Shown: positions 5,351 through 27,052 of the stretch, one piece after another
Position numbering within the stretch: the stretch's first letter is position 1
Layout of the letters: every line of letters begins with the position of its first letter
Assembly (NCBI GenBank): GCA_944390315.1
Contig: CALXPO010000013.1
Location: forward strand, 1 to 52,871
Length of the DNA stretch: 52,871 nucleotides
Direction: 5' to 3'
Source: an uncultured Alphaproteobacteria bacterium
GTDB lineage: Bacteria > Pseudomonadota > Alphaproteobacteria > RF32 > CAG-239
Made by a program: the position numbers and the translations under genes
The notes under the pieces: generated by a model
Databases searched by the model: none
What the model saw: the letters and a program-made list of their open reading frames with translations, nothing else
Told to the model about the DNA's origin: nothing

Positions 5351-6769
5351 ATGTATAATCCGAAATCATTAAAGGCTGAAGAATTTATCAGCCACGAAGA
5401 AATATTGTCGACTTTGCAATATGCGGAAGACAATAAAAATAACGCTAAACTCATCGACGAAATTATTGAAAAAGCCAAACTCAGAAAAGGTTTGTCTCAT
5501 CGGGAAGCCTCTGTTTTGCTTGCCTGTGAGTTAGAGGATAAAAATCAGGAAATTTACGCTTTGGCCGAGCAAATCAAAAAAGATTTCTACGGCAATCGTA
5601 TTGTTTTGTTTGCACCGCTTTATCTGTCAAATTACTGTGTCAACGGCTGTGTCTATTGCCCGTATCATGCTAAAAATAAGCACATTGCCCGTAAAAAAAT
5701 GACACAAGACGAAGTTCGGCGCGAGGTTATTGCTTTGCAAGATATGGGACATAAACGCTTGGCCATTGAAGCCGGAGAAGATCCGGTAAACAACCCGATA
5801 GAATATATTTTGGAATGCATCAAAACAATCTATTCAATTAAACACAAAAACGGAGCCATTCGCCGCGTTAATGTCAATATCGCCGCAACAACGGTTGAAA
5901 ATTATCGCAAATTGCACGAAGCCGGTATCGGTACGTATATCTTATTCCAAGAAACTTATCATAAAGAATCTTACGAAAAACTGCATCCGACCGGACCAAA
6001 GCACAATTATGCTTATCATACCGAAGCCATGGACAGAGCCATGGAAGGTGGAATTGACGACGTCGGTTTGGGTGTTTTGTTCGGCTTGGAGATGTACAAA
6101 TATGAATTTGCCGGCTTATTGATGCATGCCGAACATTTGGAAGCCGTTCACGGCGTCGGTCCACATACCATCAGCGTTCCCCGTATTCGCCACGCCGATG
6201 ATATTGATCCTTCGGCTTTTGATAACGGCATAGATGATGATACTTTTGCCAAAATCGTGGCCTGTATTCGAATAGCCGTTCCTTACACGGGGATGATTGT
6301 TTCTACCCGTGAAAGTCAGGCTTCCCGCGAGCGCGTACTGCATTTGGGAATTTCGCAAATCAGCGGCGGCTCCAAAACCAGCGTCGGCGGTTATGCTGAA
6401 CCTGAGCCGGAAGAAGAAAATTCTTCCCAATTTGATGTCAGCGATACCAGAACTTTGGATGAAGTTATCTACTGGTTGATGAGTATGGGCTATATTCCGA
6501 GTTTCTGTACGGCTTGCTATCGCGAAGGACGCACCGGCGACAGATTTATGGAGCTTTGCAAAAGCAAACAAATTCAGAATTGCTGTCATCCCAATGCGCT
6601 GATGACCTTAAAAGAATACTTGGTTGACTATGCATCCGAAAAAACAAAAAAACTGGGAATGGAATTGATAAAGAAAGAGCTTTATAATATTCCTAAGGAA
6701 AAAGTTCGCGAAGTCGTCGTCGAACGTTTGGATAAAATTGAACACGGTGAACGTGATTTTCGATTCTAA
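5351..6769 (+). CDS. hydG: [FeFe]-hydrogenase maturase HydG
   Basis: A 472-residue radical SAM enzyme that cleaves tyrosine to p-cresol and supplies CO and cyanide ligands on an iron synthon for the H-cluster of [FeFe]-hydrogenase. The radical SAM cluster motif is C96-x3-C100-x2-C103 (CVNGCVYC). The C-terminal auxiliary cluster motif CX2CX22C is intact: CTACYREGRTG followed by a CC pair 22 residues later. Length and both motifs match HydG and exclude ThiH. The TM1266-type regulator precedes it. HydE, HydF and the hydrogenase are not in this window and must be elsewhere if the system works. Confidence 0.97.
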   Translation: MYNPKSLKAEEFISHEEILSTLQYAEDNKNNAKLIDEIIEKAKLRKGLSHREASVLLACELEDKNQEIYALAEQIKKDFYGNRIVLFAPLYLSNYCVNGCVYCPYHAKNKHIARKKMTQDEVRREVIALQDMGHKRLAIEAGEDPVNNPIEYILECIKTIYSIKHKNGAIRRVNVNIAATTVENYRKLHEAGIGTYILFQETYHKESYEKLHPTGPKHNYAYHTEAMDRAMEGGIDDVGLGVLFGLEMYKYEFAGLLMHAEHLEAVHGVGPHTISVPRIRHADDIDPSAFDNGIDDDTFAKIVACIRIAVPYTGMIVSTRESQASRERVLHLGISQISGGSKTSVGGYAEPEPEEENSSQFDVSDTRTLDEVIYWLMSMGYIPSFCTACYREGRTGDRFMELCKSKQIQNCCHPNALMTLKEYLVDYASEKTKKLGMELIKKELYNIPKEKVREVVVERLDKIEHGERDFRF

Positions 6770-25437: not shown

Positions 25438-25630
25438 ATGGGTGCATAAATGTGCCTAGGGCGTCGAAAACCCTAAATTCTGTTAGTCGTGTGCACACGA
25501 CTTTAAAATTGTGCCGACTCTGTCTGTGGACGGATGTCGGTGAATAAGGCTTTGGCCAAATAAGCCGAGCCGTTTTAACAGAATACGGTTTTCGAACATC
25601 CGCCCGCCTTTTTTAGGTGGGTTTTTTGTT
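25438..25630 (+). ncRNA. structured RNA of unknown class between mfd and a lipoprotein gene
   Basis: About 190 bases fold into a multi-branch structure by eye. The closing helix is UCGAAAACC (25464-25472) with GGUUUUCGA (25587-25595), extended outward by GGGCG/CGCCC. A second helix is UUCUGUU (25478-25484) with AACAGAA (25577-25583). Inside are the hairpin in the 18-base palindrome AGTCGTGTGCACACGACT (25485-25502), CCGAC/GUCGG (25514-25540) and GGCUU/AAGCC (25548-25566). An intrinsic terminator follows at 25603. It has none of the signatures I know for tmRNA, RNase P, SRP or common riboswitches. It may be a free RNA or a leader that ends before the lipoprotein gene 35 bases on. Confidence 0.65.
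25603..25630 (+). terminator. rho-independent terminator of the post-mfd RNA
   Basis: CCCGCCT (25603-25609) pairs with AGGTGGG (25615-25621) with one G-U, followed by six T. It lies before the lipoprotein ribosome binding site. Confidence 0.85.
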
Positions 25631-25661
25631 TAGACTACAATAAAAAGGATGTTCTTGAAAT

Positions 25662-26240
25662 ATGAAAAAACTATCACTAATCACATTTTTATTACTTGCG
25701 GCTTGCGGCACCGTTATCAGCGGTTCGAGCCAAAATATCAGTTTTGATTCCAATGTCAAAGGCGTGAGAGTATTTATTGACGGAATGGAAATATGCAAAA
25801 CACCGTGTGTTTATCCGTTTGAAAGAAAATCAGCCACTTCAGTCATTACGGCTAAAAAGGACGGATATGAAGATAAACAAATTATCTTAAGAAGCGAATT
25901 TAACAGTATTGCCATACTCAATCTTACTTTTTGGCCGAGTTGGTTGACCGATGTGGCGACCGGCGGAATGTGGCAATACAACCGCGAAGGTGTCTATATT
26001 GATATGGAAAAGACGAACTTAAAACAAGCGGAATTGGAACAAGCCAAAAGAAATACGGCAATCCGTCGTTTTGCATTGTTTAACTATCATGCTTTGAAAT
26101 TGGAGGCCGCATCGAATCAAACGTCTGGAGAGTATTTGACGGCTTTGTCAGAGTTGAGCGGAATAAATAAATCCGAGCTGATGAAAACAGTTAATCAGAC
26201 GCAAGGAGAAGTTAATCTTGCTCACGCTTTGGTAAAATAG
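25662..26240 (+). CDS. small lipoprotein with PEGA-like domain
   Basis: A 192-residue lipoprotein. The signal peptide ends in LLAAC, giving C15 as the lipidated residue (MKKLSLITFLLLAACG). Residues 25-75 look like a PEGA domain (SFDSNVKGVRVFIDGMEICKTPC, then VITAKKDGYEDKQIIL). A short hydrophobic and tryptophan-rich stretch (LNLTFWPSWLTDVATGG) and a charged helical tail follow. Function is unknown; PEGA modules often sit in surface proteins. The start has AAAGGA well upstream and lies behind the structured RNA. Confidence 0.75.
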   Translation: MKKLSLITFLLLAACGTVISGSSQNISFDSNVKGVRVFIDGMEICKTPCVYPFERKSATSVITAKKDGYEDKQIILRSEFNSIAILNLTFWPSWLTDVATGGMWQYNREGVYIDMEKTNLKQAELEQAKRNTAIRRFALFNYHALKLEAASNQTSGEYLTALSELSGINKSELMKTVNQTQGEVNLAHALVK

Positions 26241-26311: not shown

Positions 26312-26340
26312 TTGCCAATCGGGCGAGATTTTTTTAATAT
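26312..26340 (+). promoter_or_regulatory. promoter of tandem RNA copy 1
   Basis: TTGCCA (26312-26317), 17-bp spacer and TAATAT (26335-26340). The same promoter is repeated base for base before copy 2. Confidence 0.75.
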
Positions 26341-26345
26341 AACTT

Positions 26346-26522
26346 TGCCTCCGAGAGGTCGGAGGCGGAGTGTCACAGCTCCTATCACAGAAAAAGAACA
26401 ACTCCTTTTAAGGGGAGCTGGGGATATAAGTGTATTCTTTTTAAGATACAGCGAATAACCCAGACTGTTCTGTGATCAGTTGTGAACTCCCCGCCTTGAA
26501 GTTTTTTTGAGGCGGTTTTGTT
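26346..26522 (+). ncRNA. tandem structured RNA, copy 1
   Basis: About 175 bases with its own promoter and terminator. Helices by eye: P1 GCCUCCGA/UCGGAGGC (26347-26366); P2 GGAGU (26367-26371) with ACUCC (26486-26490) and CACAGCU (26374-26380) with AGUUGUG (26478-26484); P3 AUCACAGAA (26384-26392) with UUCUGUGAU (26468-26476); P4 CUCC/GGAG; P5 CUGGG/CCCAG (26418-26463); P6 apical hairpin near 26431-26450. Terminator 26491-26522. P3, P5 and P6 differ from copy 2 in sequence but keep pairing, which is direct evidence for RNA folding. Family unknown to me; a rod-like 6S-type RNA or an anti-Shine-Dalgarno (CUCC) regulator are possibilities. Confidence 0.8.
26491..26522 (+). terminator. terminator of RNA copy 1
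   Basis: CCGCCT (26491-26496) pairs with AGGCGG (26510-26515), followed by TTTTGTTTT. Confidence 0.85.
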
Positions 26523-26571
26523 TTACCTAAAAAATGAACAAAACAAAGGGGAGAGAATATGATAAAAAGTC

Positions 26572-26600
26572 TTGCCAATCGGGCGAGATTTTTTTAATAT
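26572..26600 (+). promoter_or_regulatory. promoter of tandem RNA copy 2
   Basis: TTGCCA (26572-26577), 17-bp spacer and TAATAT (26595-26600), identical to copy 1. Confidence 0.75.
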
Positions 26601-26605
26601 GACTT

Positions 26606-26779
26606 TGCCTCCGAGAGGTCGGAGGCGGAGTGTCACAGCTCCTTTAACGTACAAACAACTCCTCAAATGGGGAGCTGTCGAAATAAGCATATTCTTTTTT
26701 AGAATATGACGAATAAGGCAGACTGAACGTTAACAGTTGTGAACTCCCCGCCTTGAAGTTTTTTTAAGGCGGTTTTGTT
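26606..26779 (+). ncRNA. tandem structured RNA, copy 2
   Basis: Paralogue of copy 1, about 260 bp downstream. P1 and P2 are identical to copy 1. P3 is UUAACGU (26644-26650) with ACGUUAA (26727-26733), P5 is CUGUC/GGCAG and P6 is CAUAUUCU/AGAAUAUG, all different from copy 1 but still paired. Unpaired stretches are conserved, notably CAACUCC, GGGGAGCUG, AUAAG before P6 and CGAAUAA after it. CAGCUCC can also pair with GGAGCUG, competing with P2 and P5, so two folds are possible. The RNA ends in a terminator 40 bases before a small HTH-like gene. Confidence 0.8.
26748..26779 (+). terminator. terminator of RNA copy 2
   Basis: CCGCCTT (26748-26754) pairs with AAGGCGG (26766-26772), followed by TTTTGTTT. 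Confidence 0.85.
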
Positions 26780-26818
26780 TATCTGCAAATCAAACAAAAC
26801 AAAAGGGAGTTTAGACCG

Positions 26819-27052
26819 ATGAAACTAAAAAAACAAATCAAACAACAATTGGGAGAAATCTTGCGTGAGTATCGTTGTACCCACGGCTTGAGCATTCGTA
26901 ACATTTCCCAACAAAGCGGCGTGGACTGGCAACAAATAGATGCGCTCGAAATCGGCTCGCTCAAAAATTGGGATGTCTATGAAAAATTGTTGAAATGTTA
27001 TGGAATGTGTTTGAAAACGGAATTAATGCCCGACAAAAAAACATTTCAATAA
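26819..27052 (+). CDS. small XRE-like helix-turn-helix protein
   Basis: A 77-residue basic protein. Residues 8-55 resemble a Cro/C1-type HTH: LGEILREYRCTHGLSIRNIS, then QQSGVDWQQIDALEIG, where the second helix pair would be SIRNISQQSG and DWQQIDALE. It could be a small DNA-binding regulator. It has a good GGGAG ribosome binding site 10 bases upstream and sits 40 bases behind the second tandem RNA, with no promoter visible between them, so read-through past the RNA terminator may drive it. The resemblance is moderate. Confidence 0.6.
   Translation: MKLKKQIKQQLGEILREYRCTHGLSIRNISQQSGVDWQQIDALEIGSLKNWDVYEKLLKCYGMCLKTELMPDKKTFQ

What the first reader, a model, noticed from the sequence alone, without database searches (positions are those of the whole stretch)
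26312..26816. Tandem paralogous structured RNAs with covarying helices
Two units about 260 bp apart share an identical promoter (TTGCCA-17-TAATAT), an identical 5' hairpin and outer helix, and a terminator. Inside, at least three helices change sequence on both sides yet stay paired: AUCACAGAA/UUCUGUGAU becomes UUAACGU/ACGUUAA, CUGGG/CCCAG becomes CUGUC/GGCAG, and the apical stem UGUAUUCUU/AAGAUACA becomes CAUAUUCU/AGAAUAUG. Unpaired strings (CAACUCC, GGGGAGCUG, AUAAG, CGAAUAA) are kept. Covariation within one genome is strong evidence of a selected RNA fold. I recognise no known family.
Basis: partly seen in the sequence, partly recalled or inferred. Interest (0 to 1): 0.85.

Follow-up and report, generated by a model that had tools for sequence, protein, structure and literature searches.

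The report
High-copy RNA switches before genes
Two predicted folded RNAs here, and a third just upstream, belong to a family with 101 copies in a related genome; most copies sit right before a gene and likely act as switches that hide or expose that gene's start signal.

Summary
The two RNAs belong to a large covarying family: 120 of 152 genomes of the same family carry it, with 4 copies here and 101 matches in a same-genus genome. The usual layout is promoter-like box, folded RNA, terminator, ribosome-binding site, gene. Unit 2 precedes a small XRE-type helix-turn-helix gene; elsewhere secreted-looking proteins follow. Unit 1 has no gene left.

One strand (ACUCC) can pair with an upstream strand or with the gene's own Shine-Dalgarno sequence, and the partners covary across lineages. 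A third leader in the window, before a PEGA-domain gene, shows it sharply: anti-SD GAACAUCC, SD GGAUGUUC. I infer a two-state translational switch combined with premature termination. The trigger is unknown.

The core is distantly related to Rfam RF02221 (sRNA-Xcc1), below its cut-off wherever tested in these bacteria, so "no known family" needs correcting. RF02221 proper lies before phage antirepressor genes, again with complementarity to its own ribosome-binding site. The RF02221-like fold itself computes as unstable in the window's leaders. No expression data exist here.

The parts
26312..26340 (+). Promoter-like box of unit 1 (TTGCCA, 17-base gap, TAATAT)
   Evidence: Sequence. A TTG box with TANNNT 16-19 bases on lies upstream of 203 of 233 leaders (7 of 240 had too little flank) against 470 of 4660 shuffled stretches. 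Not shown to be active.
26346..26491 (+). Unit 1 folded RNA domain (model R1 match, 145 bits)
   Evidence: unit 1 is one of the 16 sequences R1 was built from
26347..26366 (+). P0, the 5' hairpin of unit 1 (loop GAGG)
   Evidence: Helix 1 covaries in A2 and A3
26367..26382 (+). P1a local hairpin of unit 1: GGAGU 26367-26371 with GCUCC 26378-26382, variable segment CACA in the loop
   Evidence: All five pairs form (G-U allowed) in 230 of 240 leaders; shuffled arms 579 of 4800
26374..26484 (+). Variable P1 segment of unit 1: CACA 26374-26377 with UGUG 26481-26484
   Evidence: 3-base core perfectly complementary in 95 of 97 regex-selected units; nearly every cell paired in A2 and A3
26384..26476 (+). 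P2 of unit 1: AUCACAGAA 26384-26392 with UUCUGUGAU 26468-26476
   Evidence: P2 is not part of model R1; own helices mostly 6-9 pairs, swapped mostly 2-4
26412..26492 (+). Possible P8 of unit 1: GGGGAG 26412-26417 with CUCCCC 26487-26492, competing with P3 and P1
   Evidence: Covaries between lineages; computed as unstable in unit 2
26491..26520 (+). Intrinsic terminator-like hairpin of unit 1
   Evidence: Sequence; such a hairpin follows 239 of 240 leaders, shuffled 170 of 2400
26548..26597 (+). SD-like GGGGAG and a 12-codon ORF after unit 1 (inferred remnant of a lost gene)
   Evidence: Sequence; inference from comparison with unit 2
26572..26600 (+). Promoter-like box of unit 2
   Evidence: Sequence
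26606..26748 (+). Unit 2 folded RNA domain (R1 match, 129 bits)
26742..26748 (+). Anti-SD strand of unit 2 (AACUCCC)
   Evidence: Pairs with the SD in the computed minimum-energy fold of the read-through mRNA
26748..26780 (+). Intrinsic terminator-like hairpin of unit 2
   Evidence: Sequence
26805..26811 (+). SD of the downstream gene (GGGAGUU), complementary to the anti-SD over 7 bases
   Evidence: Sequence; GGAGTT follows 79 of 98 leader rows outside G005 against 5 of 184 control genes
26819..27052 (+). 77-aa XRE-like helix-turn-helix protein
   Evidence: HTH_31 E 0.001, below its gathering score; AlphaFold2 mean pLDDT 87, four helices; best PDB fold matches are HipB antitoxins and C proteins, E 4e-3 at best, TM 0.74
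25457..25662 (+). Third leader: P1a UAGGG 25457-25461/CCCUA 25471-25475, variable segment UCGAAAA 25464-25470/UUUUCGA 25589-25595, P2 25477-25485/25576-25584, anti-SD GAACAUCC 25594-25601, SD GGAUGUUC 25647-25654
   Evidence: Read by eye; RF02221 match 25528-25613, 37.5 bits, E 1.7e-4, cut-off 53; R1 gives only 11.7 bits, E 0.47, there
25662..26240 (+). PEGA-domain protein behind the third leader
   Evidence: PF08308 E 8.4e-6

Best explanation
The two RNAs belong to a high-copy family of predicted structured gene leaders (promoter-like box, folded RNA, terminator, Shine-Dalgarno, gene) that likely act as two-state switches on the gene behind them. Shown by sequence comparison: the layout, the covarying folds, and the complementarity between the ACUCC strand and the gene's own SD. 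Inferred: transcripts that stop at the terminator give a short RNA, and those that read through carry the gene. In one fold the ACUCC strand pairs with the SD (GGGAGUU) and translation would be off. In the other the strand is held by the 5' strand GGAGU (P1) and the SD would be free. An internal GGGGAG strand (P8) is a third possible partner; it also covers the first bases of the terminator stem in G005, so it could weaken termination, but its fold computes as unstable in the window. Unit 2 would control the HTH gene at 26819, and the third leader the PEGA gene at 25662. Unit 1 has no gene and may act only as a short RNA. The trigger is unknown; the conserved internal loop of P4 (AUAAG/CGAAUAA) is the likeliest docking site for a shared factor.
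For: Layout: terminator-like hairpin in 239 of 240 leaders, starting 0-2 bases after P1 in 234; promoter-like box in 203 of 233; an ORF with an SD in 216 of 240, 211 of them 50-86 bases on. Fold: cells paired 95.4% against 78.8% shuffled in 90 G005 leaders, 98.9% against 82.3% in 72 others; 464 and 360 double changes against 125 and 104. SD: GGAAGT in 64 of 66 G005 leader rows, 0 of 11 control genes; GGAGTT in 79 of 98 elsewhere, 5 of 184 controls; anti-SD:SD helix 6.3 and 6.2 pairs against 3.5 and 3.8 for control genes, and 3.9 and 3.7 when lineages are swapped. P1a: 230 of 240, shuffled arms 579 of 4800. Third leader: an 8-base anti-SD:SD match with a different sequence. Energies: unit 2 mRNA, SD-paired -81.2, P1 -80.9 kcal/mol; over 216 leaders the two states lie within 5 kcal/mol in 53 of 61, 50 of 67 and 84 of 88.
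Against: No expression or probing data. The minimum-energy fold has the SD-free pairing more often than the SD-paired one (42, 39, 48 against 17, 27, 36 of 61, 67, 88), so 'off by default' is not established. The RF02221-like fold (P1a with P6 and P8) lies 7.5 kcal/mol above the minimum in unit 2 and 23.5 above in the PEGA leader, which speaks against P8 as the 'on' state there. Within lineages P8 is hardly better with its own partner than swapped (9.72 against 9.16; 6.87 against 6.32), and its difference across lineages partly follows from the strand it shares with the SD pairing. P6 has no covariation support outside G005 (4.85 own, 4.94 swapped). The outer part of P1 is weak in the GGUGU lineage (4 of 5 pairs). 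In the PEGA leader the strengthened variable-segment pairing still leaves most of the SD paired. 24 of 240 units show no gene, among them unit 1 and tandem copies in L008. The G005 SD control has only 11 genes, and the regexes that accepted leader and control SDs differed slightly.
Confidence: 0.64

Rival explanations
1. They are stand-alone trans-acting small RNAs, as sRNA-Xcc1 is described, and the gene behind them is incidental.
For: Most units have a promoter-like box and a terminator-like hairpin of their own. Unit 1 and several tandem copies have no gene behind them. sRNA-Xcc1 was seen as an RNA of about 100 nt on Northern blots (PMC2996969, passages).
Against: A start codon with SD lies at a narrow distance behind 211 of 240 leaders, and that SD covaries with the leader.
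Confidence: 0.16
2. A metabolite-binding riboswitch.
For: Conserved loops inside a variable scaffold, a terminator and SD sequestration are what riboswitches look like (recalled).
Against: 101 matches in one genome, before secreted-looking proteins in those read, and many before small regulators elsewhere; no metabolic gene theme among the ORFs scanned. Nothing here tests ligand binding.
Confidence: 0.1
3. The downstream HTH protein binds its own leader and the system is simple autoregulation.
For: In the sample of 60 ORFs from outside G005, most match HTH families.
Against: The same kind of leader precedes secreted-looking proteins, some with LRR_5 repeats. In G076 nearly identical HTH ORFs sit behind leaders with different P1 and P2 stems.
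Confidence: 0.06
4. The conserved thing is DNA (a mobile or recombination element with inverted repeats), not RNA.
For: Dispersed, tandem and truncated copies; the relative sRNA-Xcc1 travels in integron cassettes (PMC12444791, passages).
Against: Covariation with the SD, and a terminator-like hairpin at a fixed place, make sense mainly in RNA.
Confidence: 0.04

Closest known systems
Rfam RF02221 sRNA-Xcc1
   Same: Strands for the same core (closing stem P8, internal-loop hairpin P4, hairpin P6). It matches the third window leader (37.5 bits), 6 of 11 distant or G005 loci scanned (32.2-46.0 bits) and 12 of 16 genomes (best 49.8 bits); in G005, 8 of its 25 matches fall on R1 matches. RF02221 proper lies before antirepressor genes in phage contigs and is complementary to their own RBS region.
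   Different: Over the cut-off of 53 bits in 0 of the 16 genomes tested; units 1 and 2 gave no RF02221 match at E up to 10. The present leaders are longer (P0, P1a, P2, P3). In them the anti-SD strand matches the RBS, while the P6 loop does not (4.23 pairs, 4.16 swapped). The core fold computes as unstable in the window's leaders.
IsrK of Salmonella prophage Gifsy-1 (RF01394)
   Same: A short terminated RNA and a read-through mRNA from one promoter, with alternative structures that set translation (PMC4825925, abstract and sections 12-13 read).
   Different: No model match in the window. Trans action is shown for IsrK and untested here.
Candidate structured RNAs upstream of HTH_XRE genes in human microbiomes
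   Same: HTH_XRE was the commonest domain directly behind their candidate RNAs (PMC8040213, one passage).
   Different: The main text does not contain the word proteobacteria; I could not compare their sequences.
Translational riboswitches that sequester the SD
   Same: Anti-SD strand with alternative partners (recalled).
   Different: No ligand known; the copy number per genome looks far higher (recalled comparison).

Membership tests
RF02221 sRNA-Xcc1 | Score at or above the curated cut-off (53 bits) | tested here: not met
   Units 1 and 2 no match; third leader 37.5 bits; 0 of 16 genomes over the cut-off
RF02221 sRNA-Xcc1 | P8-P4-P6 three-way core | tested here: inconclusive
   Strands present and P8 differs in step across lineages, but own against swapped is close within lineages and the fold is 7.5 and 23.5 kcal/mol above the minimum in two window leaders
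RF02221 sRNA-Xcc1 | A free RNA of about 88 nt | not testable with these tools
   Needs RNA data
IsrK RF01394 | Model match | tested here: not met
IsrK RF01394 | Two alternative structures of near-equal energy | tested here: met
   (computed only)
IsrK RF01394 | Short form activates the long form in trans | not testable with these tools
   Needs experiment
Riboswitch | Specific ligand binding | not testable with these tools
   Needs experiment

The most novel reading that the evidence does not exclude
Self-addressed RNA switches: each leader's short, terminated RNA acts in trans only on its own read-through mRNA, because the gene-specific P1 and P2 stems re-pair between the two molecules. Over a hundred such addressed switches would then let one cell choose which members of a surface-protein repertoire it makes.
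Probability: 0.14. Interest if true: 0.95.

Novelty: new variant of a known kind. Interest (0 to 1): 0.82.

Why it matters
If true, an orphan small-RNA family (sRNA-Xcc1) becomes the relative of a widespread class of leader switches in gut bacteria and phages, with a mechanism that can be tested. A 1.6 Mb genome with 101 matches to one RNA switch, before secreted-looking proteins in those read, would be an unusual way to control a surface repertoire. These uncultured gut alphaproteobacteria would gain a defined regulatory system.

Tried and rejected
Other Rfam families: only chance-level hits; the Phe_leader and rimP hits lie at the terminator after the HTH gene. Uniqueness of the variable P1 segment: I asked whether copies avoid sharing it. 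They do not: among 90 G005 leaders 122 pairs share it against 57.8 expected (printed before that script stopped). Segment plus P2 is unique in 90 of 90, but only 1.5 collisions were expected, so this says nothing. P6 loop against RBS: clear in phage RF02221 units (7.20 pairs against 5.24 swapped, 74 units with a usable start and flank; one search had counted 85 distinct cores), absent in the alphaproteobacterial leaders (4.23 against 4.16, 223 leaders). Insertion sites next to topA (topA found in 11 of 13 genomes) gave no clean empty site, because gene order differs, but exposed the G005 leaders. G005 ORFs: no Pfam family matched more than 4 of the 30 scanned at E 0.1.

Limits and dropped rows. 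R1 was built from 16 sequences; the truncated L018 and L020 and the partial L011 were left out. Per-genome counts are lower bounds (22, 21 and 8 candidates scored per genome). Of the 101 G005 matches I read 90. RF02221-only matches would bring G005 to 118, but I did not read those 17. In one search, 274 rows became 164 after dropping duplicates and rows without a recognised SD. In one search, 106 loci were fetched and the scan stopped at its limit; 98 were searched and 8. The 60 ORFs were chosen by me from the 95 printed. One constraint set could not be satisfied, because the PEGA anti-SD overlaps the variable segment. On rechecking I added the unfavourable P8 energies and lowered the main confidence and the novel case slightly.

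Full report
What was checked. The two units read as described, and each folds far more stably than shuffled sequence. No Rfam family reaches threshold in the region. The genome of the window (G000, 1.56 Mb) holds four copies in two tandem pairs: the two here and two on contig C24. In both places the second copy is followed by a small ORF; the two proteins are 87% identical.

Homologues. A covariance model (R1) from 16 sequences matches 120 of 152 genomes of the same family and 121 of 153 of the order at E 0.01. In a draw of 385 genomes from the class it matches 12 at E 0.001, eight of them outside the family. With more candidates scored, matches per genome reach 101 in G005 (same genus), 83 in G160, 31 in G164, 24 in G114 and 21 in G101. 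Of 98 named-record loci that matched only a short pattern, 68 gave 73 R1 matches, and these are titled as Alphaproteobacteria, uncultured proteobacterium or Rhodospirillaceae, several from deer gut samples. The other 30, from unrelated bacteria and archaea, gave none.

Covariation. On alignments made with R1 (so leaning towards its structure), cells form standard pairs in 95.4% of 90 distinct G005 leaders (78.8% shuffled, at most 49% when slid) and in 98.9% of 72 distinct leaders from named genomes (82.3% shuffled). Double changes number 464 and 360 against 125 and 104. Three variable P1 positions show all four Watson-Crick pairs in G005. P2, not part of the model, has mostly 6-9 pairs with its own partner and 2-4 when swapped.

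Leader layout. I parsed 240 distinct units. A terminator-like hairpin follows 239, starting 0-2 bases after P1 in 234 (shuffled 170 of 2400). A TTG box with a TANNNT box 16-19 bases on lies before 203 of 233 (shuffled 470 of 4660). A start codon with SD follows in 216 of 240, in 211 at 50-86 bases; the other 24 include unit 1, tandem copies in L008 and several units at locus ends. Of 60 ORFs chosen from outside G005, 46 match HTH_31 and 45 HTH_25 at E 0.1. The window's HTH protein is predicted as a confident helical fold resembling HipB antitoxins and C proteins, with weak E-values. The G005 ORFs read share a signal-peptide-like start (by eye) and no common Pfam family. Of five other ORFs scanned, three from G160 and G164 match LRR_5 and two match nothing.

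The switch. The ACUCC strand at the 3' end of the domain can pair with the 5' GGAGU (P1) and with the SD. In G005 the same strand is ACUUCC and the SD becomes GGAAGU: 64 of 66 leader rows, 0 of 11 control genes. Elsewhere GGAGTT follows 79 of 98 leader rows and 5 of 184 control genes. The 5' strand also forms a local hairpin (P1a) that changes in step as GGAGU/RCUCC, GAGGU/RCCUC and GGUGU/ACAYC. It is complete, G-U allowed, in 230 of 240, against 579 of 4800 with shuffled arms. P1 and P1a use the same strand, and so do P1 and the SD pairing, so they exclude each other; I take this as the mark of a switch. Computed energies of the SD-paired and SD-free states lie within 5 kcal/mol in 187 of 216 leaders. 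The minimum-energy fold has the SD-free pairing more often than the SD-paired one in all three sets.

P8 and P6. The RF02221 core needs a closing stem P8 (GGGGAG/CUCCCC) and a hairpin P6. P8 appears as GGGGAG/CUCCCC, GAGGGAG/CUCCCUC, GGUGGAG/CUCCACC and UGGYYGGAAG/CUUCCRRCCA. Random pairs average 5.7 and 6.6 Watson-Crick pairs within the two lineages and 3.3 and 3.1 across. But own against swapped is close within lineages, P6 hardly varies outside G005, and the fold with P1a, P6 and P8 is 7.5 kcal/mol above the minimum in unit 2 and 23.5 in the PEGA leader. I therefore treat P8 as a possible, not an established, state.

The third leader. RF02221 matches at 25528-25613, just before the PEGA gene; R1 barely sees it. 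Read by eye, it has the family's elements with different letters: P1a UAGGG/CCCUA, variable segment UCGAAAA/UUUUCGA, P2 AUUCUGUUA/UAACAGAAU, and anti-SD GAACAUCC against SD GGAUGUUC, which pair in the computed minimum-energy fold.

Relation to what is known. Of 11 loci scanned, six match RF02221 at 32.2-46.0 bits, below its cut-off of 53. Over 16 genomes it matches in 12, never above the cut-off; in G005, 8 of its 25 matches fall on R1 matches. In papers seen in passages (PMC2996969, PMC12444791, PMC12189769, PMC11701678), sRNA-Xcc1 is a small RNA seen on Northern blots, lies upstream of symE in integron cassettes, and has seven copies in a Xylella genome. PMC8876359 only cites it. A pattern from its core hits at least 120 IMG/VR stretches; all 20 that I scanned pass the RF02221 cut-off, as expected from the pattern. 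Of 10 ORFs behind such units, 9 match antirepressor-type families (P22_AR, KilA-N, AntA, Bro-N, ORF6N). In 74 units the P6-loop region is complementary to the leader's own RBS region (7.20 pairs, swapped 5.24) and to its own 5' part (7.38, swapped 5.64). So one strand with two partners is found in the named family too, through a different segment. IsrK (PMC4825925, abstract and sections 12-13) is the nearest worked-out mechanism I read. My searches showed no paper that describes RF02221 or these leaders as cis-acting switches. The library lacks most subscription journals, and Chen et al. 2011 on sRNA-Xcc1 was not read.

Judgement. The RNA family, the leader layout and the SD complementarity are well supported. 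The switching, its direction and its trigger are inference. The finding is a new variant of a known but unexplained kind.

Noticed in passing
Phage contigs fetched (L378 onward, IMG/VR): RF02221 sRNA-Xcc1 lies before antirepressor genes, and its variable P6 loop region is complementary to the RBS of the gene behind it.
   Followed up: partly
G005 (same genus as the window): 101 dispersed matches in a 1.6 Mb genome; those read lie before secreted-looking genes with no common Pfam family.
   Followed up: partly
L018 and L020 (G022): Two rearranged copies in which a stem-loop with a T-run sits inside the P3-P4 region (read by eye).
   Followed up: no
L185 and L189 (G086): Leaders before a small ORF (MTETQTFYND...) that does not look like an HTH protein.
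   Followed up: no
L193-L206 (G076): Nearly identical HTH ORFs behind leaders whose P1 and P2 stems differ, so the paired stems seem to change faster than the gene.
   Followed up: partly
L366 (G183): Another leader of the class lies before a lipoprotein-like ORF that resembles PEGA proteins (by eye, not scanned).
   Followed up: no
L168 (IMG/VR), 6412-6605: A weak R1 match (E 1e-4) in a viral contig before an ORF that looks like a BRO-type antirepressor (by eye).
   Followed up: no
window 26312-26340 and 26572-26600: The promoter-like box overlaps a possible small terminator (CUUGCC-loop-GGCGAG then a T-run in the second copy), which could insulate the unit from upstream transcription.
   Followed up: no
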